Assembly (NCBI RefSeq): GCF_019679455.1
Contig: NZ_JAIEZQ010000002.1
Coordinates: forward strand, 1,116,001 to 1,180,000
Direction of reading: 5' to 3'
Origin: Nocardioides jiangsuensis
GTDB lineage: Bacteria > Actinomycetota > Actinomycetes > Propionibacteriales > Nocardioidaceae
Length of the DNA stretch: 64,000 bases
Below are positions 34,337 through 60,004 of this stretch, piece after piece. Position 1 is the stretch's first letter; every line of letters begins with the position of its first letter. The translations under genes were made by a program, and so were the position numbers. Under the pieces are notes generated by a model. The model was not told the DNA's origin. It was given only the letters and a program-made list of their open reading frames with translations, and did no database searches.

Positions 34337-34419
34337 GTAACCAGTGTCTTATGTGCGTCAACGACACAGGACGTCGCACTAGGCTCGACCGTCAGGTCAT
34401 CATCGTCGAGGGGAGTCAC

Positions 34420-35976: not shown

Positions 35977-36001
35977 CCCGAGATCGATGAACGAGGAGAG
36001 C

Positions 36002-42200: not shown

Positions 42201-43301
42201 ACCACCGCCGTACGACGCACCGGGGACCGCGTCCTGGTGACGGGCGGGCCCGACCTCGACCAGACATCTGCGGACGAGAACCTCGACGCAGCTCGGCTCC
42301 TCGGACAGACCGCGGAGACGCTCTGCCAGGGGGATGCGCTGGCGAGTCCGGCCACCGTACAGGAGCGGTTGCGCGAGACGGCTGAGCAGACGCCGCTCAG
42401 CGTCCTCTCGGACTCGCGGCTGCTCTCGCTCGCGGCTGCCGCTGGTGGGGTTGCTGTGAGCGCGAGGGGAGAGCTCTACCCGCCGGGCATGTCCGCAGCG
42501 CGCGCTCTCCGGCTCGCCGGCGGTGCTCTGGTCGCCGGAGCGTCAGGCCTGCACGAGGCCACCGTCCGGGCGCGGGTGCGCTCCCGGTTCCCCGAGGCTC
42601 AGGAGCTTCCCAACAGACCGGAGCTTACGAGGCTCATCGAGCAGGCTGGGCTCGACCTGCACTGGAACGGCGACGCGTACGCGCCCAAGGCGTCACTGAC
42701 TGGGGCCGCCTCCAGCGTCAGCAGCACCTGGCACGGCGATCAGGCAACGGGTGACCTGGCAGCCGTCGGCGCCCGGCTGGAGCGCAGCCTGAAGGAGAGC
42801 GGCTTCCTTGCACTGTCGGTGCCCCACAGGTACGCCGTCGACGCCCAGACGCGACTCCTCGCCGAGCACGACCTGGTCCACCTCGACCTGAACCGATGGC
42901 TCCTGGAGCGGCTGCGGGAACTTGCCAGCAGCACAGGGGCGGACTGGCAGTTCGTTCTGCGAGCGGACAGCAAAGACAGGCACGACCCGCAGCGCACTGA
43001 GCTCAACGGCATCGTCCGACACGTCGCCCAGGCACTTCCCGAGCTGGTGAATGGGCAGGAGGGACCTGTGCTGCTGACCGGTGCCGGGGTTCTTGCCCGA
43101 CACGGCTGCGTCGACCTGCTCCAGCCTCTCGCCGCGCTGGACGCAGCCCGCCCGCACGCCGTGTGGCTCCTCGTGCCACGCTCCAGCGCTAGTTTCCCTC
43201 CCACTCTCGACGGTCAGGCTCTGCCGCTGGCGGCGCCCACCCAGGCCGTCGAGATCCCGATCGCCTGGGCCGTCTCCACGCCCACGTCCGTCCCCGCCTG
43301 A
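39213..43301 (+). CDS. pglW: PglW: NERD domain and tandem protein kinase (BREX type 2)
   Basis: The 1362-residue protein starts with a NERD domain (HAWTNFEFVALDG, EVDLLVLGPAGFHLVELKAW; residues ~30-110). A first kinase-like domain follows with HRGLSPSSV (341-349) in place of HRDLKPxN and KDW in place of DFG, so it is probably inactive. A second kinase domain (~510-770) has an intact GEGATSK loop, HRDIKPANL (632-640) and DFS (657-659). The C-terminal ~500 residues are helical and winged-helix-like. In the Pgl system of Streptomyces coelicolor PglW is a Ser/Thr kinase needed for phage resistance. The start is GTG 39213 after AAGGGGG. Confidence 0.9.
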   Translation: MRADSGRWTEVSPSRYPHEREGLEHVRDQLPDASPYHAWTNFEFVALDGSPYEVDLLVLGPAGFHLVELKAWSGTIRGDELEWQEHNPGAGRVITRSNPLGLTRRKAQAFRSWLEHHARREGGSVNVPFVHESLFLHGQAVDCRLPERIKQRVFGRDDVTGNHLRRIVLDRLTMPPGRGAPLGPNRERALVELLKKTGVRRQTRELRAGSWVLDPEPVDSGWGWHDNIAHHDRFSDEVARVRRWFVPAGSSAGDEAAVRRAAEREYRMLRGLDHPGLVSPNAYLEMEGAVAALVYDYDPDAVTLDRWVERRGGSAGIDTKLDLLAGLAEVIRYAHEHGLVHRGLSPSSVLVTPGGEVRVKDWQTAGSADPTTTTETHHARDLLVHDKEGHTALYAAPETVMGGATDRKASDVFSLGALAYLVLTGVAPADEPVSLRQRLQRDGGLDVSAVMDAPPRYVADLVLEATRPVVSSRTASVEDFVAGLDLVLEELTAPEEPRRTVDPLDAQPGDELEGGLSVVRRLGEGATSKALLVRRPDGTELVLKAARDDSKARRLHEEAAALQKLPGSNLVANLVEGPVEVGGRTCLLVGMAGQRTLAAEISRGRLTLDRLRRWGRDLLEIVALLEHEGVVHRDIKPANLGVVTRKSDGQPHLVLFDFSLSGVPSSDLEAGTAGYRDPFLGAPARRSYDLAAETFSASVTLHEMATGALPRWGDGRTDPAMLHTEVALERSAFDETVADGLVTFFSKALARDAGSRFHNPQDMARAWDAVFIAAEQRESSRNPEEEAARATLTTPLPQSGLSAKALSALEQYVVATVKDLLDLPPLELSRISGAAQSTKDEVVRLAKQWRRRLVTGTELQASGVDALVQLLLPAGDAGTVQDRVVRLMLGQVDPLTQGGPLSWPTAVQVENELDVTRAEVTQAWQEHLATLADRPAVAALHDQVLEILDTLRGTAVVDELALRLLDRRGSHADEPLRTAQTQGLVRVALELPGTSATTAVRRTGDRVLVTGGPDLDQTSADENLDAARLLGQTAETLCQGDALASPATVQERLRETAEQTPLSVLSDSRLLSLAAAAGGVAVSARGELYPPGMSAARALRLAGGALVAGASGLHEATVRARVRSRFPEAQELPNRPELTRLIEQAGLDLHWNGDAYAPKASLTGAASSVSSTWHGDQATGDLAAVGARLERSLKESGFLALSVPHRYAVDAQTRLLAEHDLVHLDLNRWLLERLRELASSTGADWQFVLRADSKDRHDPQRTELNGIVRHVAQALPELVNGQEGPVLLTGAGVLARHGCVDLLQPLAALDAARPHAVWLLVPRSSASFPPTLDGQALPLAAPTQAVEIPIAWAVSTPTSVPA

Positions 43302-43314
43302 CCAGGAGCATTCC

Positions 43315-46300
43315 GTGACCGTCGACCAGCGCGCCCTCCTCGCCGACCTGCAGAAGCAGGTCCTGCTCTTCGAGGACGACATCCGTGAGCGCGCCGCCGC
43401 CACCCCCGAGGTCAAGGCGCGGCTCGCGGAGGAGCACCGCAGGGCTCTCGAGGTAGGCCGCACCGCCACCGGGTACACCGAGTGGCTCGACAGCCAGGTG
43501 ACCCAGGCGGCGGTGGCGTGGGTCCTCGGCACGGTCTTCGTGCGGTTCTGCGAGGACAACCGGCTGATCGACGACGCGTGGATCTCTGGCCCAGGTGACC
43601 GCATGCGTGAGGCGGGGGAGCGGCAGACCCAGTTCCTCATCGACCAGCCGCACCTGAACGACCGCGACTGGCTGCTCGCCGCGTTCGGGCACCTGGCGGA
43701 GCACCCGGCTGTGGCGCCGCTGTTCAACCGCGACCACAACCCGCTCTACCGGTTGGAGATCTCGGCGGACGGGACCGAGTCCCTCGTCGCCTTCTGGCGG
43801 AAGCGCGGCGACGACGGAGCGGTCGTCCACGACTTCACCGACGCGGCGCTGTCCACGCGGTTCCTCGGTGACCTCTACCAGGACTTGTCCGCCGCGGCGC
43901 GGAAGATGTACGCGCTCCTGCAGACCCCGGAGTTCGTCGAGGAGCTCATCCTTGACCTCACCCTTGACCCGGCGATCGACACCTTCGGCCTCGAGGACCT
44001 GAAACTGATCGATCCGACCTGTGGGTCCGGGCACTTCCTCACAGGCGCGTTCGACCGGTTGCTCGACCGCTGGACCAAGCATGCACCCGGCATGGACCTG
44101 CGAGAGCGCGTGCAGAGGTCGCTCGACTCTATCCACGGCGTGGACGTGAACCCGTTCGCCAGCGCGATCGCGAAGTTCCGCCTGACTGTGTCCGCCCTGC
44201 GGGCCTCGGGCCTGAGCAGGCTCAAGGACGCACCGGGCTACAAGCTGCACATCGGCACCGGCGACTCGCTGCTCCACGGCAAGGCCGATGGCCAGCTCTT
44301 CGACTCTGGCCTCGCCCACCACCAGTACGCCAGCGAGGACCTGGACGAGCATCCGAGCATCCTCAAGCGCGGCCGGTACCACGTCGTCGTCGGCAACCCG
44401 CCCTACATCACCGTCAAGGACAAGGCCCTCAACGAGGCCTACCGCGCCGGGTACGACACCTGCTACCGGTCGTATGCGCTCTCGGTGCCGTTCGCCGAGC
44501 TCTTCTTCAAACTGGCGGTTTCGGACCCAGGCAGACCGGGGTACGTCGGTCAGATCACCTCGAACTCGTTCATGAAGCGGGAGTTCGGCAAGAAGCTCGT
44601 CGAGGAGTTCTTTCCCCGCCAGGACCTCACTCACGTCATCGACACCTCGGGTGCGTACATCCCTGGACACGGGACGCCTACCGTGATCTTGGTAGGTCGC
44701 CGCCGGATCCCGCGGACCCAAACCCTTCGGGCAGTGCTGGGGATCCGTGGCGAACCATCCGCTCCAGGCGACCCGGCCAAGGGCTCCGTCTGGCGCTCGA
44801 TCGTTGAGCACCTCACGGAGCCTGGGTTCGAGAACGCTTACATCTCTGTCAGCGACCTCCCTCGAGACCGGCTCAACGCGCACCCATGGTCACTTGCCGG
44901 CGGCGGTGCTGACGAGTTGAAGGCCATTGTCGAATCAGATCGCACTAGGCTCGGCCAATTGGCAAGCGCAATCGGATACATCGCTCAAACCAACGCTGAT
45001 GATGCATTCTTCGCTGACGGGTCGGCAATGACTCGCGCAGGAGTGGAGGAGCACATATTGCGTGATGTCGCGGTCGGCGACGCAGTGCGCGACTTCCGCA
45101 TTAGCGAAATGGTGCGCGGAATCTTCCCATATCAGGGAGCTCGGCCCGCTCTTGCTGAGGGCTCACAGGCCTTCAAGTACCTCTGGCCGAACAGGACCAT
45201 TCTTGGAAATCGGGCCACCTTCTCGCGCCTGACGTATTTCACGGAGGGCCGGCCGTGGTTTGAGTGGCATCAAGTCGCCCATGAACGACTGAAGGACCCT
45301 CGGTCTCTCACCTATGCGTTTGTGGCGACGCACAACCACTTCGTCTTTGACCAGAGCGGCCAAGTCGGCAACCGCTCTGCCCCGGTGGTCAAACTGCCCG
45401 AATCAGCCACAGAGGACGACCACCTCGCATTGCTTGGGGTCCTGAACTCGTCCACCGCCTGCTTCTGGCTGAAACAGGTAAGCCACAACAAGGGCAGTAC
45501 GGTCGATCAGCGTGGCGCGCGGCAGACCACAGTGGACTGGGAGAACTTCTACGAGTTCACCGGCACCAAGCTCAATGAGTTCCCGCTCCCCGACGGATCC
45601 CCCTTGGAGCTCGTGCGCGAGATGGAGGAGGCCCTCCTCAAGCTATGGCACCATCACCCACGCCACCATGCCGAGTTCGGGAGCGTCGGAGACCGTGACA
45701 TCTTGCTGGATGCTCAACGCGGCTATGCTGCGGCACGCGCTCGCATGGTTTCCCTTCAGGAGGAGATGGACTGGGCGGTCTACTGGCTCTACGGGCTTGT
45801 GGAGGAGGATCTCTCGTGCCCGGTGCACCTCTTGCCAGGTGTAGAGCTCGGCCATCGTGCATTCGAGATCGCACTTGCCAGGAAGGTTGCGGCCGGAGAG
45901 GCTGACGACGCCTGGTTCACCCGGCACAGGTCTAAGCCGACCACGGAGATCCCGGACCACTGGCCGGGTGAGTACCGTGAACTCGTGCAGCGACGGCTGG
46001 ACCTGCTCGAGAGTCATCCGCATCTGACACTCCTGGAACGGCCAGAGTGCAAGCGGCGCTGGGCCTCCGACCCGTGGGACGTCATGGTCCGGGAGGCGCA
46101 GGAGGGTTGGTTGCTCGACCGTCTCGAGAACGAGCAACTCTGGCGCGACTCAGCAGGAAGACCTGTCGCGCAGTCCATTGCCCAGCTGACGGACCGGCTC
46201 GCCGCGGACCAGGAGTTCCTCGCCACCCTTGAACTGTGGGCTGGGCGGACCATCTCCGACGTGGCCGCCGAGCTCGGCCGTCTCGTCGGCGAGGAACACG

Positions 46301-46863
46301 TGCCGTTCCTGGCAGCGCACCGGTACAAGCCCTCGGGGTTGCGCAAGCGTGCGGAGTGGGAGCAGACGTGGGACTTGCAGCGTCGTGAGGACGCGCGGGA
46401 GGACGTCGGGACGATCCCCGTGCCAGCGAAATACGTTACGGGTGACTTCTTGCGGACGTCGTACTGGCGCAACCGCGGTAAGCTCGACGTGCCCAAGGAG
46501 CGGTTCATCTCCTACCCGGGAGCCGAGCGCGGCGCTGACGCAACGCTCGTGCTCGGCTGGGCAGGGTGGGACCACGCCGAGCAAGCGATGGCACTTGCAA
46601 CGCTCGCGCTGAACCGTGCCCAGCAGGACGGCTGGGACGCCGTCCGGCTTACACCGTTGCTCGCGGGCATCACCGAGCTCGAGCCGTGGGTGCACCAGTG
46701 GCACGCCGACGTTGACCCTCGGATGGGCATGTCCCCGGCACAGGCCGTCACCGCAACCCTGGAGCAGCAGCTGACCCGGCTCGGCCTGACCCGTGAGGAC
46801 CTGACAGCCTGGCGACCGGAGCCCACCACGCGCGGGCGACGACGCAAGACCAAGGAGGACTGA
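43315..46863 (+). CDS. pglX: PglX: adenine-specific DNA methyltransferase (BREX type 2)
   Basis: The 1182-residue protein has methyltransferase motif I DPTCGSGHF (233-241) and motif IV NPPYITV (361-367), the N6-adenine type. It marks host DNA and takes part in the Pgl/BREX block of phage growth. The middle part, coded at about 44.88-45.45 kb, has clearly lower G+C than the rest (33 of 60 bases at 44941-45000 against 40 of 60 at 44101-44160) and probably is the target-recognition region, exchanged by recombination. GTG 43315 is placed six bases after AGGAG; the longer frame upstream overlaps pglW and is rejected. pglY starts five bases after its stop codon. Confidence 0.92.
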   Translation: MTVDQRALLADLQKQVLLFEDDIRERAAATPEVKARLAEEHRRALEVGRTATGYTEWLDSQVTQAAVAWVLGTVFVRFCEDNRLIDDAWISGPGDRMREAGERQTQFLIDQPHLNDRDWLLAAFGHLAEHPAVAPLFNRDHNPLYRLEISADGTESLVAFWRKRGDDGAVVHDFTDAALSTRFLGDLYQDLSAAARKMYALLQTPEFVEELILDLTLDPAIDTFGLEDLKLIDPTCGSGHFLTGAFDRLLDRWTKHAPGMDLRERVQRSLDSIHGVDVNPFASAIAKFRLTVSALRASGLSRLKDAPGYKLHIGTGDSLLHGKADGQLFDSGLAHHQYASEDLDEHPSILKRGRYHVVVGNPPYITVKDKALNEAYRAGYDTCYRSYALSVPFAELFFKLAVSDPGRPGYVGQITSNSFMKREFGKKLVEEFFPRQDLTHVIDTSGAYIPGHGTPTVILVGRRRIPRTQTLRAVLGIRGEPSAPGDPAKGSVWRSIVEHLTEPGFENAYISVSDLPRDRLNAHPWSLAGGGADELKAIVESDRTRLGQLASAIGYIAQTNADDAFFADGSAMTRAGVEEHILRDVAVGDAVRDFRISEMVRGIFPYQGARPALAEGSQAFKYLWPNRTILGNRATFSRLTYFTEGRPWFEWHQVAHERLKDPRSLTYAFVATHNHFVFDQSGQVGNRSAPVVKLPESATEDDHLALLGVLNSSTACFWLKQVSHNKGSTVDQRGARQTTVDWENFYEFTGTKLNEFPLPDGSPLELVREMEEALLKLWHHHPRHHAEFGSVGDRDILLDAQRGYAAARARMVSLQEEMDWAVYWLYGLVEEDLSCPVHLLPGVELGHRAFEIALARKVAAGEADDAWFTRHRSKPTTEIPDHWPGEYRELVQRRLDLLESHPHLTLLERPECKRRWASDPWDVMVREAQEGWLLDRLENEQLWRDSAGRPVAQSIAQLTDRLAADQEFLATLELWAGRTISDVAAELGRLVGEEHVPFLAAHRYKPSGLRKRAEWEQTWDLQRREDAREDVGTIPVPAKYVTGDFLRTSYWRNRGKLDVPKERFISYPGAERGADATLVLGWAGWDHAEQAMALATLALNRAQQDGWDAVRLTPLLAGITELEPWVHQWHADVDPRMGMSPAQAVTATLEQQLTRLGLTREDLTAWRPEPTTRGRRRKTKED

Positions 46864-46867
46864 GTCA

Positions 46868-49800
46868 GTGACACTGCTCCGCGACGTCATCTCCATCCCC
46901 GAGCGGGTCACCGCCAGCGACTTCGTCGTCGGCCTGGCCGAGGGGGTCGAGCACAAGAAGGAGACGCTCTCCACCTACGTCGTCACCCCGCAGCTCGCGG
47001 AGTGCTTCGACAAGTCGCTTGGGCTGGTCTCCGAGGCGGTGCAAGACCAGCGCTCGCAGGCGGCGTTCCTGCACGGCTCCTTCGGCTCCGGAAAGAGCCA
47101 CTTCATGGCCGTGCTCTACATGCTGCTCGAGCACGACCCCGACGCCCGGGCGGTCCCCGAGCTCGCCGAGGTCGTCGACAGGCATGACGCGGTCCTACAG
47201 GGCAAGCGGGTCCTGCCGCTCACGTTCCACATGATCGGGGCCGAGAGCCTCGAGCAGGCGCTGTTCCAGGGCTACATCCGCCAGATCAGGGCGGCGCACC
47301 CGGGATGCGACCTCCCCGCGCTGCACCAGAGCGACGAGCTGATGGCCAACGCCGACCGGCAGCGCGAGCTGCTCGGGGACGACGCGTTCTTCAAGGCGCT
47401 CAACGACAAGCCCGCGACCAGCGGCGGTTTCGGCGGAATGGGTGCCGTAGCCAGCGGCGGCGCCGGCATTTGGGACGCGGAGTCCTACGCCGACGCCCGG
47501 TCGCGGAGCCAGGGCGATCCGCGACGTGACCGGCTCGTCAGCGACCTGGTCAGGACGATGTTCTCCGCCTTCGCGTCCAGCAATCAGTACGTCAACCTCG
47601 ACACCGGGCTCGCCGTCATCTCCCGCCACGCCCACGACCTCGGGTACGACGCCGTCGTGCTGTTCCTCGACGAGCTGATCCTCTGGCTCGCCTCCCACCT
47701 CGGTAACCGGGAGTTCGTCACCAACGAGGGCGCCAAGCTCGCCAAGCTTGTCGAGTCCCAGGATGCTCGCCGGGCGATCCCGCTGGTCAGCCTGATCGCC
47801 CGGCAGCGGGACATCACCGAGTTCCTCGGCACCCACGTGCCTGGCGCGGAGCGCGCGGCTTTCGCGGACGTGTTCGGCTGGTCGCGAGGTCGCTTCGACG
47901 ACATCCGCCTCGAGGACCGCAATCTCCCGGTCATCGCCGAGAAGCGCTTGCTGAAGCCGAAGGACGAATCCGCCCGCAAGGTCATCGACGACGCCTTCGC
48001 GCAGGTCGAGCGCCGCCCCGAGGTCTGGGACGTGCTCCTGACCGGCTCCCAGGTCGAGGGCGGCGGCACCGGCTCGGACCAGGACGCCTTCCGACGTACC
48101 TATCCCTTCAGCCCGGCGCTCGTCGCCACCCTCGTGGCCCTGTCGCAGGCGCTGCAGCGTGAGCGGACCGCGTTGAAGGTGATGCTGCAGCTGCTCGTCG
48201 ACGGCCGCGACGACCTCGAGGTGAACGACCTGGTCCCAGTCGGGGACCTCTTCGACGTGCTGGTCGACAGCCAGGCCCAGGCCGTCACCGACGAGCTCAA
48301 GAAGCAGTTCGAGACCGCGCGTCGGCTCTACCACGTCAAGCTGCGCAGGGTCCTGCTCGACCTGCACCAGCTAACAGACGAGCAGGCTCAGGAGCTGCCG
48401 CGCAACCACGCGTTCCACGCTGACGACCGGCTGGTGAAGACGCTCCTGCTCTCGGCACTCGCGCCGGACGTCCCTGCCCTGTCCGGGCTCACCGCCAGCA
48501 GGCTCGCTGCGCTCAACCACGGCACCATCCAGGCCTGGCTTCCCGGCCAGGAGGTCGCGGTGGTGCTGCAGAAGATGAAAAACATTGCCGCCCAGGTCGG
48601 CGAGGTCCAGGTCGGCGAGGGCGACGACCCGGTCATCACCGTCGAGCTGACCGAGGTCGACTACGAAGGAGTCATCGAGCGGGCTCGAGGCGTGGACAAC
48701 GAGGGCAACCGCCGCCGTGCTCTTCGCGAAATGGTCTGGAAGCAGCTCGGGATTCGTGAGGAGAGCACCCTCGACGGCGTCCAGGCACAGAGCATGACCT
48801 GGCGTGGACGAAGGGTGAGTGTCGACCTGGTCTTCGGCAACGTCCGCGACCACGGCGACCTCCCCGACGCCGCCCTGATGTCGGAGGGCGAGCGCTGGAA
48901 GGTCGTCGTCGACTACCCTTTCGACTCCGAGGGGCAGAGCCCTCTGAGTGACCTATCCCGCGTTGAGACGCTTCAGCAGAGCGGGGTGCGCAGCAACACG
49001 CTGGTCTGGATCCCAGCCTTCCTGACCCGCCAGCGGCTCGAGGACCTCGGGACCCTCGTCGTGCTCGACCACCTTCTCGGCGGGACGGGGGACCGGTTCC
49101 ACCAGCACGCCCAGCACCTCAGCCCGGTCGACCGGGAGCAGGCGCGTGCGCTCCTGCGGCAGCGGCGCGATCTGTTGCGCGAGAAGCTCGACGGAGTGCT
49201 CAAGCAGGCGTACGGCGCGGCCGCACGCGTCGAGGCGGACATCGACACGGGCAACTCGCTGGAGTCGCCCTTCCACACCCTCGCCGAGGGGTTCCGGCCG
49301 CAGGCACCCGTGGGTGCGACGCTCCAGGACGCCTTACGGCACCTGGTCGACCAGGCACTCACCTTCCAGTGGCCGGCGCACCCGCGGTTCGAGCCAGGCG
49401 ACCAGGAGGTGCGTACGACGGACCTGCGGAAGGTGCTGGAGCACTGCGAGGAGGCGTTCGACGCCCCCGGTGGACGTCACCAGGTCGAGCAGCGGGACCG
49501 GCCTGTCCTGCGCCGGATCTGCAACACGCTCGACGTCGGCAAGTTCCACGAGAACCACCTGCAGCTCGACCAGAGCACCTTCCCCTGGAGCAGGCGGCTG
49601 CAGCAGGCAGCCGCTCGTGAAGGGCTCAAGGACGTGTACCCGGTCAGCTCGCTGCTCGGCTACCTTGACGAGCCCGAGCCACGAGGTCTCGACCGCGGCA
49701 CTAGCGGACTCATCCTGCGGTTGTTCGCGCTCATGGAGGACCTGGCGTGGTTTCGCGACGCGGTCGCCGTGGAGCCGCCGGCCGTGGACCAGGTGACGAC

Positions 49801-50539
49801 CTCCTACCAGCTGCGCAAGCCCGACCTGCCCGACGAGGCGGTCTGGAAGGCCGCCGCGAAGAACGGCCGCGACGCCCTCGGCATCAAGGTCACCGACCTC
49901 CTCAACGCGGCCAACGTCGTGCGGCTCGCGACAGGTGCTCGCGAGCTCGCGCAGCGGAACGCCGGCAACGTGCGGGACCTGGAGCGTCTGCTCGCGCAGC
50001 ACGCCGCCGACCTTGGCGTGGAGCGCACTGACGCAGACCGCTGGGCCACGGCGTCGGCAGTCAGCGCGCTGCTCGACTCCCTGATGACGGAGAGCGACGA
50101 CAAGAGGCTCATCGAGAAGCTCGCCCGGGCGGCGTGGCCGACGAGCGCCGCTGCGGCGAAGCGCTCGCTCGAGACTGCAGAGCAGGTCGGACGGACCCTG
50201 CACAACGCCAACTGGGACGTCCTCCGCGCACTTCGCACCGTCGCGGACAATCGGAAGGACGAGGCTGTTGCCCTGCTTGAGCGGTTGAGCGACGCCGCCG
50301 CGCGCGATGAGCTCTCCGCCAGCCTGGTGTCGGAGCTGCCGGTGATCCAGCGGGAGGCGATCAGGCTCTTCACCGTGACCCCGCCCCCTCTGCCGCCACC
50401 ACCGCCTCCGCCGCCGGGTGGTGGGGGCAGCCTTAAGGTGCCGGCCGGCGAGATCGAGGAAGCGCTCGGGCGGGTTCGTAAGACTGCCGAGGAGCATCCC
50501 GGCAAGAACATCAAGGTGACCTGGCAGGTCGAGGAGTGA
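46868..50539 (+). CDS. pglY: PglY: large P-loop ATPase (BREX type 2)
   Basis: The 1223-residue protein has Walker A GSFGSGKSH (70-78) near the N-terminus and Walker B VVLFLDELILWLAS. It belongs to the BrxC/PglY group, the large ATPase found in all BREX systems, needed for both methylation and phage blocking. Near the C-terminus a proline run (PPPLPPPPPPPPGGGG) links to a short final domain with VPAGEIEEALGRV. It begins at GTG 46868. Its stop overlaps the pglZ start by four bases (GTGA), so PglY and PglZ are made in step. Length is in the usual range. Confidence 0.93.
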   Translation: MTLLRDVISIPERVTASDFVVGLAEGVEHKKETLSTYVVTPQLAECFDKSLGLVSEAVQDQRSQAAFLHGSFGSGKSHFMAVLYMLLEHDPDARAVPELAEVVDRHDAVLQGKRVLPLTFHMIGAESLEQALFQGYIRQIRAAHPGCDLPALHQSDELMANADRQRELLGDDAFFKALNDKPATSGGFGGMGAVASGGAGIWDAESYADARSRSQGDPRRDRLVSDLVRTMFSAFASSNQYVNLDTGLAVISRHAHDLGYDAVVLFLDELILWLASHLGNREFVTNEGAKLAKLVESQDARRAIPLVSLIARQRDITEFLGTHVPGAERAAFADVFGWSRGRFDDIRLEDRNLPVIAEKRLLKPKDESARKVIDDAFAQVERRPEVWDVLLTGSQVEGGGTGSDQDAFRRTYPFSPALVATLVALSQALQRERTALKVMLQLLVDGRDDLEVNDLVPVGDLFDVLVDSQAQAVTDELKKQFETARRLYHVKLRRVLLDLHQLTDEQAQELPRNHAFHADDRLVKTLLLSALAPDVPALSGLTASRLAALNHGTIQAWLPGQEVAVVLQKMKNIAAQVGEVQVGEGDDPVITVELTEVDYEGVIERARGVDNEGNRRRALREMVWKQLGIREESTLDGVQAQSMTWRGRRVSVDLVFGNVRDHGDLPDAALMSEGERWKVVVDYPFDSEGQSPLSDLSRVETLQQSGVRSNTLVWIPAFLTRQRLEDLGTLVVLDHLLGGTGDRFHQHAQHLSPVDREQARALLRQRRDLLREKLDGVLKQAYGAAARVEADIDTGNSLESPFHTLAEGFRPQAPVGATLQDALRHLVDQALTFQWPAHPRFEPGDQEVRTTDLRKVLEHCEEAFDAPGGRHQVEQRDRPVLRRICNTLDVGKFHENHLQLDQSTFPWSRRLQQAAAREGLKDVYPVSSLLGYLDEPEPRGLDRGTSGLILRLFALMEDLAWFRDAVAVEPPAVDQVTTSYQLRKPDLPDEAVWKAAAKNGRDALGIKVTDLLNAANVVRLATGARELAQRNAGNVRDLERLLAQHAADLGVERTDADRWATASAVSALLDSLMTESDDKRLIEKLARAAWPTSAAAAKRSLETAEQVGRTLHNANWDVLRALRTVADNRKDEAVALLERLSDAAARDELSASLVSELPVIQREAIRLFTVTPPPLPPPPPPPPGGGGSLKVPAGEIEEALGRVRKTAEEHPGKNIKVTWQVEE

Positions 50540-52812
50540 CCACAGCGCAGCGAGTGTCGGCGCGCGACGTCAGAGCCGTGGTCGAGCGCTACTGGGTGCA
50601 GCAGCCGCAGCGGTACAAGCAGCGGCTGCTGCTCCTGCACGGGCGGCCCGAGTGGGACGGCGACGACCACGTTGACGTCTCCGGGGTCAGGGTGCGTGTG
50701 GGCACGGCCGTCTCGCCCCTGGCACTCAGGGATCTCATCACCCGCGAGACCTACGACCGCCTCGTCGTGCTCACCGACGTCGACGAGACGGAGATCGGCC
50801 CGGATCTGCTGTCGCTGGCAATCAGGCAGCGGGTCAACTCGGTGGACACCTGGGACACGGTTCGTGCGGCCTTTGGCGTGAGCGCGACCGCGATCGTCGA
50901 CGGCAGCGTCGCACGTGAGGGTGAGGTCCTTGCTCGGGCGCTGCTGGATAAGGCTCCACCCGGTGGCTGGCCGCCACCACCCTCCGGTGTTCTTACCCGG
51001 GAGCACGCCTACCGCTCGCTGGTCGAAGCGACGCTGGGACTGAAGCCCCGCCAGCTGGACGCGGCAGGCCTGCTGGACTGGACCCTTGAGCCCGCCGGTG
51101 TCCTGGCACTTCACGACATGGAGGAGACACTTCGAAGCCGCGTCGTCAGCTGGCTCCTCCAGCACACAGGGGCCGCCACCAGGCCGGTCCTCGACCTTGT
51201 GGCGAACGGACACGGCACGGACGCCGTACCTCTCGGCGTCGTGGCAGGAATCCTGTGGACCGTCCCAGGTGCTGCCCGCTCTCAAGGATGGGTCGACCAG
51301 AAGGTCGGGCGGCCCTTGACCGCTGGCGAAGCGAAGGACTGGTCCGAGCTCAGCGAGGGCTGGGTGGAGCGGCGGCTGGTCAGCGACCCTGAGGCTGCCC
51401 GTGGGATGCTCGAGCGTGCGGAGCAGCTAATGGACGAGGTGCATGCCACGCAGCACGTCGCTACCAGCCACCTCCTCCCGGGCGGGCTGCAGGCTCGAGC
51501 CCGTGACGCGGCGGAGGCTGCTGCGGCCGCCTCGAGCTCGGCGACTCCGGTGAACGTCGAGCGGGCAGAGTCCGCCTTCCGGAGCCTGGGCCGGCACCGG
51601 CTCGCGGCGCTGGGGCACAAGGACGTGGAGGCCGTGGCTATGGCAGTCCGCCTGGTGCGCTGGCTGGCAACGAACCCCTCAGCTCCGGTGCACGCGCAAG
51701 GTGCGCTCGCCTGGCAGGTGGCCGAGGGTGGATGGGTGGACGCGGCACGCCAGGTGGTGGCCAACGGAGCAGACGACGCGGTCGTGGCCGGCCACCTGCG
51801 AGCGGTGCACGAGGCTGCGACGACTCGGCGTGGTGCGATCGACGCGGCTGCGGCAGGACTCGTGGCTACTGCCGTGGAGGACGACCAGCCCTTCGGCGAG
51901 CTTGTCCCGGTTGAGGACGCCCTGACCAGACTCGTGGCCCCGCTCGCAGGGGAGAGCCCGGTCCTGCTGCTCGTGCTCGACGGGATGTCGGCTGCGGTCG
52001 CCAACGAGGTGGTCGCCTCCGCTGTGGGACTCGGCTGGGTGGAGCACGTGGCCGAGGGGAGCGAGCGTCGTACCGTCCTCATGGCTGGCTTGCCGACCGT
52101 CACCGAGGTCTCACGCACGAGCCTGGTCACCGGCAGGCTGCAGCGCGGCGGCCAACGTGAGGAGCGCGACGGGCTGCGCGCGGTCGTGGGGGTGAGGTCG
52201 CGTCTCTTCCACCTCCGGGACCTGGAGGCTCGTCCCGGCCAGGACCTGCCGGACGAGGTGCGTGAGGCGGTGCAGGACACGTCAGTCAGCGTCGTCGCCG
52301 CTGTCCTGAACGCCGTCGACGACAGCCTCTCCGGCGGTGACCCCGGCCGGACTCGCTGGGACGTCGCCGCGGTCAGGCACCTGCAAGCGCTTCTCGAGCG
52401 CGCCCGCGCGGCCGGCCGGGTAGTGGTCCTCACCTCCGACCACGGTCACGTGGTTGATGACGCCACCGAGGGTGAACTCCGCTCTGCGTCCGGTGGTGGC
52501 GCGCGGTGGCGGCCATTCGACGGCCAGGTCGCCAATGACGAGGTGCGCCTTCGTGGACGCCGCGTGGTCCTGGGGGATGGTGACGTCGTAGCGGCGGTCA
52601 AGGAGACGCTCCGCTACCGCGCCCGTAGCGAGGGGTACCACGGCGGAGCGGCGCTGGCAGAGATGGCGATCCCCTTCGTGGTTCTCGCCCGGCGCGGGGA
52701 GAGTCTGCCTGGCTGGACGCCTGCAGGCGACCGTCAGCCCACGTGGTGGACCCGTCCGGCCGAGCCGGACCTACGTTCGGAGGACGTGCAGGCGCCGGGG
52801 CTGTTCGGCTAG
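50536..52812 (+). CDS. pglZ: PglZ: alkaline phosphatase-fold protein (BREX type 2)
   Basis: The 758-residue protein has the alkaline phosphatase-like metal sites of PglZ: LLLVLDGMSAAVANEV (Asp482) and VVLTSDHGHVVDD, with YHGGAALAEMAIP following. PglZ is the other universal BREX protein; in the Pgl system it limits the toxicity of PglX. The GTG start lies within the pglY stop. Its stop overlaps the stop of the convergent 259-residue gene by four bases. The genes brxD and brxHI, usual after pglZ in BREX type 2, are absent; a GTPase operon takes the place. Confidence 0.92.
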   Translation: MTTAQRVSARDVRAVVERYWVQQPQRYKQRLLLLHGRPEWDGDDHVDVSGVRVRVGTAVSPLALRDLITRETYDRLVVLTDVDETEIGPDLLSLAIRQRVNSVDTWDTVRAAFGVSATAIVDGSVAREGEVLARALLDKAPPGGWPPPPSGVLTREHAYRSLVEATLGLKPRQLDAAGLLDWTLEPAGVLALHDMEETLRSRVVSWLLQHTGAATRPVLDLVANGHGTDAVPLGVVAGILWTVPGAARSQGWVDQKVGRPLTAGEAKDWSELSEGWVERRLVSDPEAARGMLERAEQLMDEVHATQHVATSHLLPGGLQARARDAAEAAAAASSSATPVNVERAESAFRSLGRHRLAALGHKDVEAVAMAVRLVRWLATNPSAPVHAQGALAWQVAEGGWVDAARQVVANGADDAVVAGHLRAVHEAATTRRGAIDAAAAGLVATAVEDDQPFGELVPVEDALTRLVAPLAGESPVLLLVLDGMSAAVANEVVASAVGLGWVEHVAEGSERRTVLMAGLPTVTEVSRTSLVTGRLQRGGQREERDGLRAVVGVRSRLFHLRDLEARPGQDLPDEVREAVQDTSVSVVAAVLNAVDDSLSGGDPGRTRWDVAAVRHLQALLERARAAGRVVVLTSDHGHVVDDATEGELRSASGGGARWRPFDGQVANDEVRLRGRRVVLGDGDVVAAVKETLRYRARSEGYHGGAALAEMAIPFVVLARRGESLPGWTPAGDRQPTWWTRPAEPDLRSEDVQAPGLFG

Positions 52813-53588: not shown

Positions 53589-53929
53589 CACTGGAACCAC
53601 CGCCTCCAGCTGAGCTCGCGGCGTGCGAACCGCTCGGCATGCTGGCGTACCGTCTCAACGTCGATCTCGAGGCCCGCCGCGTCGGCTGCGAGAACCACGT
53701 CTCGCACTATGCGGTCCCGAAGCTCAGGCACCGTCCACCGGGTACGGCCTACGGTCACCTGCACCTCGTGCCGCCTGCCCCCCGATAGTGTTGACGTCGG
53801 TACGCGGAAGGCGCGCCCGCGCGTAGCGACACCAGAGCCTTCGACGGTGGCGCTTCCATCGGTGACGCTGACTTCGTCCAACACCGGGTCGACGGGCTGG
53901 GCTTGCGCGGTGACGGACAAACGAATCAC
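53588..53929 (-). CDS. Small protein of unknown function, second gene of GTPase operon
   Basis: The 113-residue protein seems to have a beta-rich N-terminal half (VSVTDGSATVEGSG, FRVPTSTLSGG, HEVQVTVG) and a helical C-terminal half (ELRDRIVRDVVLAADAAGLEI). No family is recognised. GTG 53929 lies six bases after GGGGAGG and overlaps the GTPase stop by four bases (GTGA); the gene's own stop overlaps the next start. So all three are translated as a coupled unit, suggesting a complex with fixed proportions. Confidence 0.65.
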   Translation of the reverse strand: MIRLSVTAQAQPVDPVLDEVSVTDGSATVEGSGVATRGRAFRVPTSTLSGGRRHEVQVTVGRTRWTVPELRDRIVRDVVLAADAAGLEIDVETVRQHAERFARRELSWRRWFQ

Positions 53930-54540: not shown

Positions 54541-54671
54541 CGGTTGAGCCTCCGAGACAGTTGGGACGAAACGAGCATATGCGGAATCACCGGATTTGGG
54601 GACGTTCTTCGCGGCGACGCTATCCAGGGGATAGGGGTAGCGGTGCAGCGAGGGCGATCGGATGCGCGGCC

Positions 54672-55310
54672 TCACAGTCGTGCCCGCGGAGCGGGCCTGC
54701 GGCCGAAGGACGAGGCGTCGCGGGGGCGACCGCGGCGTGCCAGCGCAGCGAGCCTTTCGGCTTCTTCTTTGAGACCACTATCCAGGTCCTCCCACCTGAG
54801 AGCCGAGTACGGCATGCTTCGACGCACCGCGTGAGCGGCCGCAGTAGTGGCTCCGTCGTTCGTGACAAGAGCGATGTCGACCCCCTGGCTTCTCTGCTTC
54901 CTCGGCCAGTCCCGTGAGCAGGGAGCGAAGATGAGCGCCTCGGTGCCAGTAGCCGCCGCTCTGCCGAGTACCGATCACGGGCACGGTCAGAGCGGCCGAG
55001 CCCGTGCTGTCTTTTGTGGACCAGGGAGTGCCTTGGCCGCGACGACGAACTGGCGCAGCGTCTCGCGATGGTAGGCGGGATCGTTCGTCCCCTCGACCGG
55101 AATGGCGGCGAGGATAGGAGTCGCGCGGCGACTGTCCTCGAGTTCAAGGGGTGTACTCGTTTGCCGTCGACTCCCCATCCAGCTGGCCGGTCGGCGATGC
55201 GAAACGCGCTCAGGGTGGCTTTTAGCTGGGGGTCCTCCTGCAGCCACGCCCACCTCAGGTTGCACTCCGTGTCAGTAGGTAGGTACCACGCGTGACACGC
55301 CAGTTTCCTG
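54672..55310 (-). pseudogene. Broken N-terminal part of a SIR2-family defence protein
   Basis: Pieces in several minus-strand frames read as one protein: WYLPTDTECNLRWAWLQED and ATLSAFRIADRPAGWG (about 55290-55170), TPILAAIPVEGTNDPAYHRE (about 55130), VPVIGTRQSGGYWHRGAHL (about 54970), then VDIALVTNDGATTAAAHAV and LRWEDLDSGLKEEAERLAAL (54880-54720). The order and motifs recall the region in front of the NAD-binding domain in bacterial SIR2 defence proteins, where 'LVLFLGAG' would come next; here the frame ends at TGA 54672. At least three frameshifts and a lost catalytic domain make it dead. Family assignment rests on pattern memory. Confidence 0.5.
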
Positions 55311-55973: not shown

Positions 55974-58253
55974 TCATAGTCCGGCGTTGATGAGGTCCTG
56001 AAGGAAGCGAGCCCCGACCTGCACACGATCTACCGAGTCGATGAGTTCATCGTTCAGATCGACTTGCGGAATCGACAGGAGCCACTCGTCGTCGGACGGG
56101 ACTGCTCCTGCTGTGCCTTGTAGTACCTTCTCGAGGATCTCTTTGGCTTCGGGCGACGCAGGAACCTGAATGGCGATACCAGTCGGCACGCTGCGCAGGC
56201 CGACGCCTGACCGGGTCAGCTTCATCCACCGTGGGGTGGTCGAGTAGCCGTAGAACCACGGATCTTCCGCTTCGCTCGGCTGGCCCGCCCGGCACCAGAT
56301 GGCATAGAGGTAGGCGTCTCGGTACCAGCTGCGCTGCACCGTCTTCCGCAACATGGTCAGCTCGTAGCCTAGTCTTTCGGCGGCGCCGTAGTAGATGCCG
56401 GAGTTGCCCTCTCGCATCGTCGAGTAGCGAACCAGGTAGTAACGCCAGTCGTAGTGGTTCTTCGCGGAGCGATCGTTGATGAACTCGTCGCTGATAGCGC
56501 ACAGCGACACATCGGTCTCTGCGTTGGAGCCGGCAACGCGGTCGAGAAGCTTGCCGAGCACTGTGCGAGCGCGTGTGAGTGCGACTCGGTCACCGCGGTC
56601 TACCAGGAGCAACCGCCACACGCTCTCGGTTGTGGGGGACCCGAACCGGTGTCGGTCCGAGTCCGGGTAGTCGCGCTGGTACTCACCCGTCGCAAGGAGA
56701 GCACCCGTGAGTAGAGGCCAATGCTTGGGGTCGAAGACGGCCTCGAACGCCCCGGCACGGGCCTCGATCGAGGAACCCAGGTCGAATGCTGACAGGGTGC
56801 CCCGCAGGATGTTGTGGTCCTCGAGGCGAGCCAGCGAGGCAGCGAGCTCGGGGTGGCGACCTCGCAGCGCACGCTTGGCGTTCTCGTCGGCCACCTGGTT
56901 CTGATTGAAGGTGGCGAGGCTGGCGAGGTCACCGCTGTGCATGAACTCGGCTACCTCAGCGATGAACTTTGGCATGTTCTGGACACGCATTTCGAACTGG
57001 GATGCCTCATTGACATTGCGCAGGCTGCGCAACCGGGTCCGTGCATCTTCGGTCTTGTCGATCCGGTGCGTGAGAACCGCGAACAGGAGCAGCGTGTCGG
57101 TCAGTGAGAACAGTCGTGTCGTGCCGCGCGTCGCGCCGTACCTCTCACAGCAGGCGTGGAACAGGTCGGTGGAGGGTGCTCCGAAGAGCCGCACGCCGTC
57201 GCCTTCGATGGAGCTCTTGAACAGGTCGGCGAAGACGTCAGCAATCGTGCGATCCGCAACCCAGGTATCGAACGCGGCGCAGATGAAGTCGAGATGTTCC
57301 TTACGTCGTGGGTTGCTGCAGCTGAGCAAGGCATTGATGCGTTGCTCGGGCGTGAGGACTTCTTCGCCTCGAATCCGGTTCTCGCGCCACTCGCACACCT
57401 CGACGAGAAAGTCGAAGTAGCGCATGAACTCGTCGTCGACGATGTCGTTGTCGCCGCGGTAGGGCCAGAAGAGATCTGTCCACACCCCGTCGATCTTGTG
57501 TCCGAAGTCGTCAGCGGCTCCGGACTCGGCGACCAGTTGGCCCAGGTGGGCCTTGAATGCCTCGAATGCGGTGAGGGGCTTCCCGCGCGAGTTCATCTTG
57601 ATGTACAGGTCCTCGGCAGCGCCCATCTCGTCGATGGGCAGCAACTGGAACCAGATGGCGGGGTGCGTGTCGTCCGTGAGTCGTGTCCACAGTTCTTCGG
57701 CGTCCTCATCTGAGAAGCGCTCTGCGATAGCGTCCAGGGTCACCAGCATCGCGCGGATCGTGGGGTCGAAGCGCCATAGATGCAGATACCAGCTCTGGTC
57801 CGTGATCCACGCGGACGGCGGTCCTGCGAGGTCACTGGGAGGCGGATACTTCACGATGCGCTCACAGAAGAGACGAGCACTCGGACGCGTGGCGTAAGTG
57901 AAGCTTGCCCACGGCTGCCGGCCATCCAGACCGCCGCGGCGGAAGGCGACGTACCAGTGCAGGAGGAAGAGTGTGGTGAGGCGTTGCTGTCCGTCGAGAG
58001 GCTCGAACTTGCCGTCACGGACCTCGCCATAGATGAAGTCGAGTCCGACCGCGACGTCCTCGGTGAGCGCGGTATGTAGGGCATCGAGGAATGTCCCACG
58101 AATGGCGTTGGTCCGAGCGTCCTGGCGGCCCTGGGCGTAGTCTCGCTGGATCAGCGGGATCTCCACCTGATCAACGCTAGGTGCGCCTGCGACCTGCTCG
58201 CCGAACATGCGGTGGAAGCTGGTCCGATAGCCGGTCATACCCCTGTCGCTCAT
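55974..58253 (-). CDS. DUF262 protein (GmrS-like half), second gene of DUF262 pair
   Basis: The 759-residue protein has the DUF262 (ParB-like nuclease/NTPase) signature: IPLIQRDYAQGR (32-43), FIYGEV (74-79) and EPLDGQQRLTTLFLLHW (84-100). The rest is helical with many aromatic residues and no DUF1524 HNH motif. DUF262 proteins occur in GmrSD type IV restriction and SspE-type defence. ATG 58253 overlaps the stop of the upstream DUF262-DUF1524 gene by four bases (ATGA), so the two are a fixed pair. The likely role is recognition or regulation in a nuclease complex (inference). Confidence 0.8.
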   Translation of the reverse strand: MSDRGMTGYRTSFHRMFGEQVAGAPSVDQVEIPLIQRDYAQGRQDARTNAIRGTFLDALHTALTEDVAVGLDFIYGEVRDGKFEPLDGQQRLTTLFLLHWYVAFRRGGLDGRQPWASFTYATRPSARLFCERIVKYPPPSDLAGPPSAWITDQSWYLHLWRFDPTIRAMLVTLDAIAERFSDEDAEELWTRLTDDTHPAIWFQLLPIDEMGAAEDLYIKMNSRGKPLTAFEAFKAHLGQLVAESGAADDFGHKIDGVWTDLFWPYRGDNDIVDDEFMRYFDFLVEVCEWRENRIRGEEVLTPEQRINALLSCSNPRRKEHLDFICAAFDTWVADRTIADVFADLFKSSIEGDGVRLFGAPSTDLFHACCERYGATRGTTRLFSLTDTLLLFAVLTHRIDKTEDARTRLRSLRNVNEASQFEMRVQNMPKFIAEVAEFMHSGDLASLATFNQNQVADENAKRALRGRHPELAASLARLEDHNILRGTLSAFDLGSSIEARAGAFEAVFDPKHWPLLTGALLATGEYQRDYPDSDRHRFGSPTTESVWRLLLVDRGDRVALTRARTVLGKLLDRVAGSNAETDVSLCAISDEFINDRSAKNHYDWRYYLVRYSTMREGNSGIYYGAAERLGYELTMLRKTVQRSWYRDAYLYAIWCRAGQPSEAEDPWFYGYSTTPRWMKLTRSGVGLRSVPTGIAIQVPASPEAKEILEKVLQGTAGAVPSDDEWLLSIPQVDLNDELIDSVDRVQVGARFLQDLINAGL

Positions 58254-60004
58254 GCGGCAACCTCCTCGGACTCGTCGAGCTGGTCGTTCTCAGGAATGTC
58301 TTCGAGAAGGTAAGGGTCCAGAGTCGCGCGCATTGCCTCCAGATAGGCTTCCCGATCGCGTGGCCCCCAGAAGTGGAGCTGCTGCGCGGCCGAACGCTTG
58401 TCGTAGTACTTCAGGAACACATTGCGTGTGCACACCGGAATGTACGACCCGCTTTGGTCGAGGTTGATGATGTGCCGGCGCTTGACCTCGAAGACAGAGT
58501 TGCTCAGCACGCTGTTGTCTTCGCGCGACAACAGAGCGAGGTTCGCGATTGAATCGACCTCGTCTCGGTCGGCTGCTTCTGGTGCGTCTGCTCCGTCGGA
58601 GTCCGCGCCGGGCGTGAACAAAGCGACGATCTCACGATGCAGCGGCTCGAAGGTGTCGCTGGAGATTGTGGGCAGCGCTGCATCGATTCGGCTCTGCAGG
58701 GCTTCTCGTTCGTCGGACGAGACGTCCAAGGCGTCCAAAGCCTTTCGATGCTCTTTCAGCCAAGCCGTCCACTGCTCGACGGTATTCAGACCTTGGGAGT
58801 TCTGGGCATGAATGTGCTCGAGGGACCAGAGCTGGCGGGCATGTGCGTTGAATGAATACCGCTCGGACGAGTGCTCGTTTCGACGTATGGTCTCGACGTT
58901 CATCAGCAGGAGGGTCCGGTTCGTCTTGGTGCCGCCGTACGTGAGGGCGGCGACCCCATGCCACGGAAGATCGAGGCTCTTCGCGATGAGTGAGTCAAGG
59001 GCTGCCTCGAAGGTCGACTTGGCGAGTCCCTGAGCGAGTGCGACGAGGTCGAAGAACGTGGCCCGCCCTGACGCGACAAGATAACCGATCTTGTGAAAGA
59101 GGTTCCGGTCGTCGTGCCACCCGAGGACAAGAGAGTGCAGGTCGATCACCTGGTCCCACAACTCTTGGGGGTCGGCCACGATGTGAGGCCGAAGCGTCTC
59201 GAACGTCTGGAACGGGACCCGGTGCCGGGGCTGCTTCCCCGAGATGGAGTCGGCCAGGGTGTCGAGAAGCAGCCCAATGCGGGTGGCTGGGCCGGTCGAG
59301 GAGCCCGTGGCGAACGCCCAGATCTCCGGCGACCAGAGATCGCGCTCGATGCTGTCCCACTGCGCCGCAGTCTCATGCTCGCGCTCGATCCGCGAGAGCA
59401 GTGAGGCTTTCACGAGCTCGGCGTCGGTGAGCGGGATTCGCCCCACATTGAGCCGTGTGAACAAGGCACGCGAGTCGAACTCAGGCTCCTGGGGTGCCTC
59501 GTACCAGATGACGTAGACCGTACTGGTCAGTGCCTGGAAGAGGTTGATAGCGGCCAAGGTCGCGTTTTCCTGTTCCGCGAACCATGCCTGTACGACGACG
59601 AACGCCTCATACATGTGGAAGTAGTCGATGTTCCTCGAGCTCGCCTCTGCCTGAGGGTCGTCGAGAAACTCTGCGCTGCCCGGTCGGGTCTCATATGTGA
59701 GCGTGTAGCGCAGCTCTGACTGTGGCAAGTAGTTCTTGATGCTCCGAAGGATGAGATAGAGCGTGGTAAGGCGCTGCTGACCGTCCACGAGCTCCCAGCA
59801 CCCGTCCTCCATCGGCTTCACCACGACCGGTTGCAGGTAGTAGTTCGAGGCTCCGGCCTCCTTGATGTCGTCCAGAAGCTGCCGGACCTCGGCCTCGCCC
59901 CAGCGGTAACCGCGCTGATAATCGGGGACGAAGAAGGTTCCTTCGAGGTCGCCGACTTTGCGCGGTTTCAGGATTGCGGGAGTGCCAAGATACATGCCGC
60001 CCAT
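58250..60004 (-). CDS. DUF262-DUF1524 protein (GmrSD-like nuclease), first gene of pair
   Basis: The ~584-residue protein has DUF262 motifs VPDYQRGYRW (26-35) and ELVDGQQRLTTLYLILR (71-87), then a C-terminal DUF1524 HNH-type domain with LEHIHAQN (about 395-402) and ANLALLSREDNSVLSNSVFE with the conserved asparagines. This fused layout is that of GmrSD and SspE, which cut modified or foreign DNA using NTP. ATG 60004 (MGGMYLG) or ATG 59995 could be the start; neither has a strong ribosome site, and the longer frame to 60577 runs antisense to decayed genes. It is coupled to the following DUF262 gene. Confidence 0.85.
   Translation of the reverse strand: MGGMYLGTPAILKPRKVGDLEGTFFVPDYQRGYRWGEAEVRQLLDDIKEAGASNYYLQPVVVKPMEDGCWELVDGQQRLTTLYLILRSIKNYLPQSELRYTLTYETRPGSAEFLDDPQAEASSRNIDYFHMYEAFVVVQAWFAEQENATLAAINLFQALTSTVYVIWYEAPQEPEFDSRALFTRLNVGRIPLTDAELVKASLLSRIEREHETAAQWDSIERDLWSPEIWAFATGSSTGPATRIGLLLDTLADSISGKQPRHRVPFQTFETLRPHIVADPQELWDQVIDLHSLVLGWHDDRNLFHKIGYLVASGRATFFDLVALAQGLAKSTFEAALDSLIAKSLDLPWHGVAALTYGGTKTNRTLLLMNVETIRRNEHSSERYSFNAHARQLWSLEHIHAQNSQGLNTVEQWTAWLKEHRKALDALDVSSDEREALQSRIDAALPTISSDTFEPLHREIVALFTPGADSDGADAPEAADRDEVDSIANLALLSREDNSVLSNSVFEVKRRHIINLDQSGSYIPVCTRNVFLKYYDKRSAAQQLHFWGPRDREAYLEAMRATLDPYLLEDIPENDQLDESEEVAA

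What the first reader, a model, noticed from the sequence alone, without database searches (positions are those of the whole stretch)
55974..60004. Coupled pair of DUF262 proteins, only one with the DUF1524 nuclease
The upstream protein is DUF262-DUF1524 and the downstream one DUF262 with a long non-HNH C-terminal part, with an ATGA overlap. Known GmrSD is one fused or two split subunits; two complete DUF262 copies in fixed order may form a heteromeric enzyme with two NTP sites.
Basis: partly seen in the sequence, partly recalled or inferred. Interest (0 to 1): 0.55.

Follow-up and report, generated by a model that had tools for sequence, protein, structure and literature searches.

The report
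Two-gene GrwAB-type anti-phage DNA cutter
Two overlapping bacterial genes encode a pair of related proteins, only one of which carries the DNA-cutting part; the pair matches a recently described phage-defence enzyme (GrwAB) that needs both proteins, so it is a sound but ordinary find: a new member of a known kind.

Summary
On the minus strand gene A (58250-60004, 584 aa: DUF262 plus His-Me/HNH DUF1524) overlaps by ATGA gene B (55974-58253, 759 aa: DUF262 plus a long part without HNH). The pairing is not chance: of 80 B homologues kept from a scan of 84,980 species genomes, 76 have an A homologue directly upstream, one is fused to it (A then B), one has only the tail of a broken A, and two are cut by a contig end. 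All 17 plasmid records keep the order. One A without B was seen.

The idea of a two-DUF262 enzyme is already published. The pair has the gene order, domain layout and conserved catalytic residues of GrwAB (V. cholerae WASA lineage, 2025), in which both genes, both DGQQR motifs and the nuclease are required and phages with hypermodified DNA are restricted. TgvAB and GmrSD-ECOR17 are further two-gene systems. The window pair lies beside a BREX type 2/Pgl locus. Added here: near-complete linkage, a natural A-B fusion, and a confident model in which B resembles A up to about residue 475 and lacks the nuclease. Sequence identity to V. cholerae GrwAB itself was not measured. Verdict: new member of a known kind.

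The parts
58250..60004 (-). Gene A (GrwA-like): DUF262 (GmrSD_N) plus DUF1524 (GmrSD_C) protein, 584 aa
   Evidence: profile of the family 735 bits
59399..59941 (-). DUF262 head of A, residues 22-202
   Evidence: Pfam PF03235 2.9e-33, coordinates converted
59771..59785 (-). DGQQR motif of A (residues 74-78)
58469..58828 (-). His-Me/HNH module of A with His397, Asn488, Asn497
   Evidence: Pfam PF07510 in part; invariant in 83 of 83
58250..58253 (-). ATGA overlap of A stop and B start
55974..58253 (-). Gene B (GrwB-like): DUF262 protein with a long C-terminal part, no HNH, 759 aa
57543..58166 (-). DUF262 head of B, residues 30-237
   Evidence: Pfam PF03235 7.3e-19
57981..57995 (-). DGQQR motif of B (residues 87-91)
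56829..57542 (-). Helical body of B, residues 238-475, aligned with the SspE/DndI body
   Evidence: model pLDDT 91.7; DndI alignment reaches model residue 475
55977..56828 (-). C-terminal end of B, residues 476-759, helical then alpha/beta, no fold named
39213..52812 (+). Neighbouring BREX type 2/Pgl genes (pglW, pglX, brxC/pglY, pglZ); context, not part of the pair
   Evidence: PADLOC

Best explanation
The two genes encode a GrwAB-type two-protein type IV (modification-dependent) restriction enzyme. A (GrwA-like) carries the only recognisable nuclease. B (GrwB-like) has the same kind of sensor/NTPase head and helical body but a different C-terminal end. Most likely the two join as a heteromer through their DUF262 heads and helical bodies, where BrxU makes a homodimer. 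Both nucleotide sites must work before the complex acts on hypermodified phage DNA, and the His-Me nuclease of A then cuts. Beside the BREX type 2/Pgl locus it would cover phages whose modified DNA escapes BREX. Shown here: layout, coupling, co-inheritance, intact motifs, a natural fusion. Inferred from published GrwAB: need for both proteins, modified-DNA target. Inference only: interface, stoichiometry, order of steps.
For: Domain content and ATGA overlap. A directly upstream of B in 76 of 80 genome loci, fused in 1, A tail only in 1, B cut by a contig end in 2. 17 of 17 plasmid records in the order A-B. In the Victivallis fusion L089 the A profile scores 273.8 bits on residues 6-512 and the B profile 279.6 bits on 524-1076, with two DGQQR and one EHI. 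A and B distances correlate, r 0.87 over 83 pairs, permutation maximum 0.16. Published GrwAB: nuclease gene first; R81, H431, N521, N530 of GrwA and R86 of GrwB essential; window A has R78, H397, N488, N497 and window B R91. An E. coli pair of the same order is homologous: A 33% over 610 columns (8e-88), B 41% over 323 columns (3e-56). The A model aligns with SspE Z 15.4 (rmsd 18.4, 370 aligned), DndI 14.9 (10.7, 432), BrxU 9.2 (16.0, 365). Pgl genes adjacent.
Against: The letters of V. cholerae GrwA and GrwB were not compared; the link rests on layout, order and residues. Residue spacing is weak evidence: His-to-Asn is 91 here and 90 in GrwA, but ranges from 17 to 281 in the family, and the Asn-to-Asn spacing of 9 also occurs in presumed TgvB-like proteins. 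One full-family A (L111) has no B in the 5 kb downstream. One B homologue (L095) lacks DGQQR: 74 of 75 have it. Only 37 of 83 pairs have the same nearest neighbour in both sets, and r 0.87 has no species-tree control. GmrSD_C in A is near its cut-off. Nothing shows expression, activity or the target base of the window pair.
Confidence: 0.8

Rival explanations
1. A is a self-sufficient single-chain GmrSD/BrxU-like enzyme and B is an independent accessory, for example a decoy against phage-injected inhibitors or a regulator, not a structural half.
For: A has the complete DUF262-DUF1524 plan of BrxU and SspE. L111 shows an A without B. The TgvAB authors list overcoming a phage inhibitor, a regulatory or a structural role as options for the partner.
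Against: B precedence and order in 78 of 78 testable genome loci including a fusion; in published GrwAB and TgvAB the nuclease protein alone gives no defence.
Confidence: 0.12
2. The pair belongs to the TgvAB / GmrSD-ECOR17 branch of two-gene systems.
For: Same two-DUF262 principle, one partner with nuclease.
Against: TgvAB has the nuclease-less gene first; here it is second, as in 76 of 76 adjacent genome loci. Presumed TgvAB-like pairs match the window proteins over the DUF262 head, with one further 69-residue stretch at E 0.03 in A; their first protein has DUF7834, which B lacks at E 0.01.
Confidence: 0.03
3. An SspE/DndI-like effector that senses phosphorothioate in host DNA.
For: SspE and DndI are the best structural matches of both models.
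Against: DndC has no match in the genome and DndD only matches at 33.7 and 18.8 bits against a cut-off of 245.85. Ssp families were not searched.
Confidence: 0.03
4. A chance neighbourhood or decaying duplicate without joint function.
For: Both proteins share the DUF262 fold.
Against: Linkage across many phyla, junction of -38 to +17 nt in 74 of 74 measured pairs, intact motifs. Other DUF262 families pulled in by the same search stand alone in 62 of 64 viral loci, and in 43 of the 44 that have at least 1.2 kb on both sides.
Confidence: 0.02

Closest known systems
[quoted passage not shown] cholerae (PMC12137116, 2025; passages read)
   Same: Two genes in the order nuclease protein then partner; DUF262 with DGQQR in both; DUF1524 His/Asn/Asn in the first; partner with a long part of unknown domains after DUF262.
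   Different: Here in a high-GC genome beside BREX type 2/Pgl; target base unknown; identity to the V. cholerae proteins not measured.
TgvAB (PMC11411939, 2024; passages and one section read)
   Same: Two DUF262 proteins, one with DUF1524; both proteins and both DGQQR motifs required; phages with modified cytosines restricted.
   Different: tgvA, without nuclease, is named and cloned as the first gene. The GrwAB paper calls GrwB and TgvA distinct outside DUF262.
GmrSD-ECOR17, GmrS1/GmrSD2 (PMC12373910, 2025; passages and one section read)
   Same: Two GmrS-like genes needed together, one with HNH; T-even phages restricted.
   Different: Sequences not compared here; GmrS1 lies upstream of GmrSD2, the opposite order to the window.
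BrxU (PMC8565348, 2021; passages read)
   Same: DUF262-DUF1524 enzyme encoded with BREX, NTP-regulated, cuts modified DNA.
   Different: Single protein, homodimer to monomer cycle; no DUF262-only partner described.
SspE and DndI
   Same: Best structural matches of both models.
   Different: Single-chain effectors of phosphorothioate systems; DndC not found in this genome.

Membership tests
GrwAB | Two adjacent genes, nuclease protein first, DUF262 in both | tested here: met
GrwAB | DGQQR intact in both proteins | tested here: met
   Arg78 in A, Arg91 in B
GrwAB | His, Asn, Asn of DUF1524 (GrwA 431/521/530) in the first protein | tested here: met
   His397/Asn488/Asn497 in A; no GmrSD_C match in B at E 0.01
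GrwAB | Partner with a long extra part after DUF262 | tested here: met
   522 residues after DUF262 in B without a Pfam hit at E 0.01
GrwAB | Sequence homology to V. cholerae GrwA and GrwB | not tested
   Those letters were not at hand. Homology was shown to an E. coli pair of the same layout, which is annotated only as DUF262 proteins.
GrwAB | Both proteins required; phages with hypermodified DNA restricted | not testable with these tools
   published for V. cholerae GrwAB
TgvAB | Partner gene without nuclease comes first | tested here: not met
   nuclease gene first here and in 76 of 76 adjacent genome loci
TgvAB | Sequence homology to TgvA/TgvB outside DUF262 | tested here: inconclusive
   TgvA/TgvB letters not at hand; only presumed TgvAB-like pairs from plasmids were compared
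Single-chain GmrSD/BrxU | One gene makes the whole system | tested here: inconclusive
   B or a fusion accompanies A nearly always, but whether A alone is active cannot be tested here; L111 is an A without B
SspE/Dnd | Phosphorothioate modification genes in the genome | tested here: inconclusive
   DndC no match, DndD below cut-off; Ssp families not searched
SspE/Dnd | SspE/DndI fold | tested here: inconclusive
   Z 11-15 at rmsd 9-18, a fold shared across the superfamily

The most novel reading that the evidence does not exclude
B is a nuclease-less twin of A: its body follows the SspE/DndI plan to about residue 475, then has a helical plus alpha/beta end in place of the nuclease, with its own nearly invariant charged residues. 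The active enzyme would be an obligate heterodimer with two NTP sites and one cutting site, one half reading the modified base and the other cutting; unlike the BrxU homodimer cycle, and perhaps a nickase. The A-B fusion in Victivallis would be the same machine in one chain.
Probability: 0.3. Interest if true: 0.5.

Novelty: new member of a known kind. Interest (0 to 1): 0.27.

Why it matters
How the work is divided in two-protein GmrSD systems is stated as open by their discoverers. A pair conserved in several phyla, a natural single-chain fusion and a confident model of the partner give direct ways to test it. For this genome it means that a BREX type 2/Pgl island also carries a probable layer against phages with modified DNA.

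Tried and rejected
Rejected: chance neighbours or decaying duplicate; TgvAB membership, by gene order. Made unlikely, not excluded: phosphorothioate sensing.

Led nowhere: phages collection, 2 weak partial hits. NCBIfam, no meaningful family. PADLOC of 2023 gives A partial hits to HEC-06, Orf5 and SspE models over the head, and B weak SspE hits. Foldseek gave no PDB match at E 0.001 or better for either model (the best for A is BrxU at 1.4e-3). No fold could be named for B 476-759: the best row for 616-759 is a DUF1801 protein, Z 3.4, 100 aligned, rmsd 3.6, within what the tool calls common; that part was not folded or searched alone. The A profile over 396 genomes of the phylum matched 31 at E 1e-10, but only the own copy at full strength (735 bits, next 70.7), so it gives no rate of A genes without B; the B sequence found its own copy and four weak partial matches. 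A DNA search of E. coli genomes gave 7 of 5426 genomes with a 136-base match; one was opened.

Corrections to my own counts: one search found A upstream in 74 of 80 because two overlapping ORFs failed its distance limit; one search gives 76. I had first put L037 with the contig-end cases; one search shows that the last 62 residues or so of an A lie directly before its B, after unrelated sequence, so A is broken there (B is frame-broken too).

Pair statistics leave out L089, L107, L113, L115, L117 and short or incomplete ORFs, and its start codons were chosen by rule. One search uses 74 such pairs, 8 plasmid pairs and the window; broken, duplicate and the two most distant plasmid pairs were left out. 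Of 17 plasmid records 13 were opened; for the other 4, near-duplicates, adjacency was read. The 12 viral B loci lie on contigs that are also among the 14 A loci, so the two counts are not independent. The solitary-gene comparison counts only DUF262 genes that the A or B profile finds at E 0.001. Alignment A5 for the model of B has 61 rows out of 83 complete B proteins plus the window; A6 for A has 54 of 80 plus the window.
Full report
Observation. On the minus strand A runs 60004-58250 (584 aa) and B 58253-55974 (759 aa), with an ATGA overlap. Pfam gives GmrSD_N and GmrSD_C for A and GmrSD_N alone for B. GmrSD_C in A is modest: 26.8 bits, and 21.9, under the cut-off, in the six-frame search. 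The nuclease assignment rests also on His397, Asn488 and Asn497, identical in 83 of 83 complete homologues, and on the model, which aligns with SspE, DndI and BrxU almost to its end.

Is the pair more than chance? tblastn of B in 72,556 plasmid records gave 17 records; in each a DUF262 gene lies upstream on the same strand (13 opened; 4 near-duplicates read), and it matches the A profile in the 13 opened (weakest 86 and 168 bits in L020 and L019). An IS3 element separates A and B in one record, another interrupts B in a second, and one A is frame-broken. The 15 records in which A is covered to 80% or more are all among the 17. A pattern-plus-tblastn scan of the 84,980-species collection with an alignment of B kept 80 loci: in 76 A is directly upstream, in 1 A and B share an ORF, in 1 (L037) only the tail of a broken A remains, and in 2 (L043, L088) B is cut by the contig end. 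In 74 complete pairs from genome and viral loci the A stop and B start lie -38 to +17 nt apart, 19 of them at -4 as in the window (start codons chosen by rule). In viral contigs 13 of 14 full-family A loci have B next to them and L111 does not. As a contrast, 62 of the 64 weaker viral hits, other DUF262 families, show one DUF262 gene; of the 44 with at least 1.2 kb on both sides, 43 do. By the record titles, and phyla as I recall them, 51 of the 80 loci are Bacteroidota; the rest include Actinomycetota, Bacillota, Pseudomonadota, Spirochaetota and others.

Fusion. In L089 (uncultured Victivallis) one open frame without ambiguous bases encodes A and then B. From the Met at residue 121 of the frame it has 1142 aa, two DGQQR (ending the head motifs at about 72 and 591) and one EHI (367). 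The A profile scores 273.8 bits on 6-512 and the B profile 279.6 bits on 524-1076. Pfam sees two GmrSD_N stretches but no GmrSD_C at E 1e-5. It is one case, from a metagenome assembly. Genes fused elsewhere in the same order are indirect evidence that the products work together.

Co-inheritance. Pairwise distances of A and B over 83 pairs correlate at r 0.87, permutation maximum 0.16; the nearest neighbour agrees in 37 of 83. There is no species-tree control, so this shows shared history, not contact.

Structure. Both models are confident (B pLDDT 91.7, A 90.2). Foldseek found nothing at E 0.001 or better for either. VIA-align, a second look at Foldseek's list, places A on SspE (Z 15.4, rmsd 18.4, 370 aligned), DndI (14.9, 10.7, 432) and BrxU (9.2, 16.0, 365), and B on SspE (12.8, 15.0, 278), DndI (11.1, 9.3, 336; model residues 6-475) and BrxU (5.2, 16.4, 274). 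The rmsd values are large, as when domains are shifted. B thus looks like an A-type head and body to about residue 475, followed by helices and an alpha/beta end (about 616-759) whose fold I could not name. B has nearly invariant residues beyond DUF262 (R409, N413, E457, K460, E478, G485, W603; 92% or more).

What it is. The matching system is GrwAB in Adams et al. 2025 (author name recalled; PMC12137116, passages read, not the whole text). grwA encodes DUF262-DUF1524 and grwB DUF262 with several unknown domains; both genes are needed; GrwA R81A, H431A, N521A, N530A and GrwB R86A abolish defence; Queuovirinae and Tevenvirinae are restricted; escapers carry changes in DpdA; 471 hits, about 1% of genomes, were found, and an AlphaFold3 complex is shown. 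Window A has R78, H397, N488, N497 and B has R91. The His-to-Asn distance (91, against 90 in GrwA) proves little, since it ranges from 17 to 281 in the family, and the Asn-to-Asn distance of 9 is shared with presumed TgvB-like proteins. An E. coli pair of the same order is homologous to both window proteins. TgvAB (PMC11411939, passages and one section) and GmrSD-ECOR17 (PMC12373910, passages and one section) are further two-gene systems. Machnicka et al. 2015 (PMC4619093, passages) had noted DUF262 genes near GmrSD homologues.

Surroundings. On the plus strand lies a BREX type 2/Pgl set: PglW 39213-43301, PglX 43081-46863, BrxC/PglY 46868-50539, PglZ 50536-52812. Before it come a C5 methylase (32547-33890), a GHKL ATPase, a Z1-domain helicase and a DUF4420 protein (34351-39177), reminiscent of Mza systems. 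BrxU complementing a BREX locus is the published parallel (PMC8565348, passages); a 2026 BREX survey names GmrSD-family enzymes as auxiliaries (PMC12839542, passages). Among 78 homologous loci with at least 1 kb before A, a WYL regulator lies near the pair in 19, a DnaQ-like exonuclease in 16, HsdR in 13, HsdM/HsdS in 12 and an AAA ATPase in 12 (sequence clusters; one representative of each named by Pfam). The family therefore sits in several kinds of defence locus.

Mechanism. Most likely the proteins form a heteromer through DUF262 heads and helical bodies; both NTP sites gate recognition of hypermodified DNA; the His-Me nuclease of A cuts. Layout, coupling and conservation are shown here. 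The need for both proteins and the class of target are inferred from GrwAB. Interface, stoichiometry and nick-versus-cut are guesses. Sensing of host phosphorothioate is unlikely.

Verdict. Observation confirmed; interpretation sound in substance but not new; new member of a known kind. The fusion and the model of B are the useful additions. No A-B fusion is mentioned in the passages that my search of PMC12137116 for fused and fusion returned; supplements were not available to me, and the GrwAB term search found 2 papers in the held library.

Noticed in passing
L089:2238-5663 (+): Natural fusion of the A and B proteins in one 1142-residue chain in an uncultured Victivallis.
   Followed up: partly
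window 32547-39177 (+): C5 cytosine methylase, GHKL ATPase, Z1-domain helicase (PADLOC Helicase_II 6.8e-49, MzaC 3.2e-27) and DUF4420 protein (weak MzaD) in a row, a Mza-like set directly before the Pgl genes.
   Followed up: partly
window 39213-52812 (+): pglW-pglX-pglY-pglZ set (BREX type 2) by PADLOC models.
   Followed up: partly
window 52809-53600 and 53926-54675 (-): Between Pgl and the pair: a 263-aa protein without Pfam match whose end overlaps the end of pglZ, and a 249-aa P-loop GTPase-like protein (MMR_HSR1).
   Followed up: no
L115 and L117, about 4908-8066; L214; L215: A second kind of DUF262 pair: short first gene (DUF262-DUF7834 in L117), DUF262-DUF1524 second. Homologues of the first gene occur in 1008 plasmid records, 908 of them Klebsiella. 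Presumed TgvAB-like.
   Followed up: partly
L111:781-2301: Full-family A gene with intact nuclease residues but no B in the 5 kb downstream, in a viral contig.
   Followed up: partly
L037:423-2801: An eroded pair: only the tail of A remains before a frame-broken B.
   Followed up: partly
L016, L019, L039 and 16 other loci: WYL regulator next to the pair in 19 of 78 loci, DnaQ-like exonuclease in 16 of 78; perhaps a regulated four-gene version.
   Followed up: partly
L002 (G000:C1:1159574-1160317): A third DUF262 protein in the same genome, with a Schlafen AlbA_2 domain at its end.
   Followed up: no
window 56797-57029 (-), B residues 409-485: Nearly invariant R409, N413, E457, K460, E478, G485 in B outside DUF262: a possible unrecognised functional site.
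   Followed up: no
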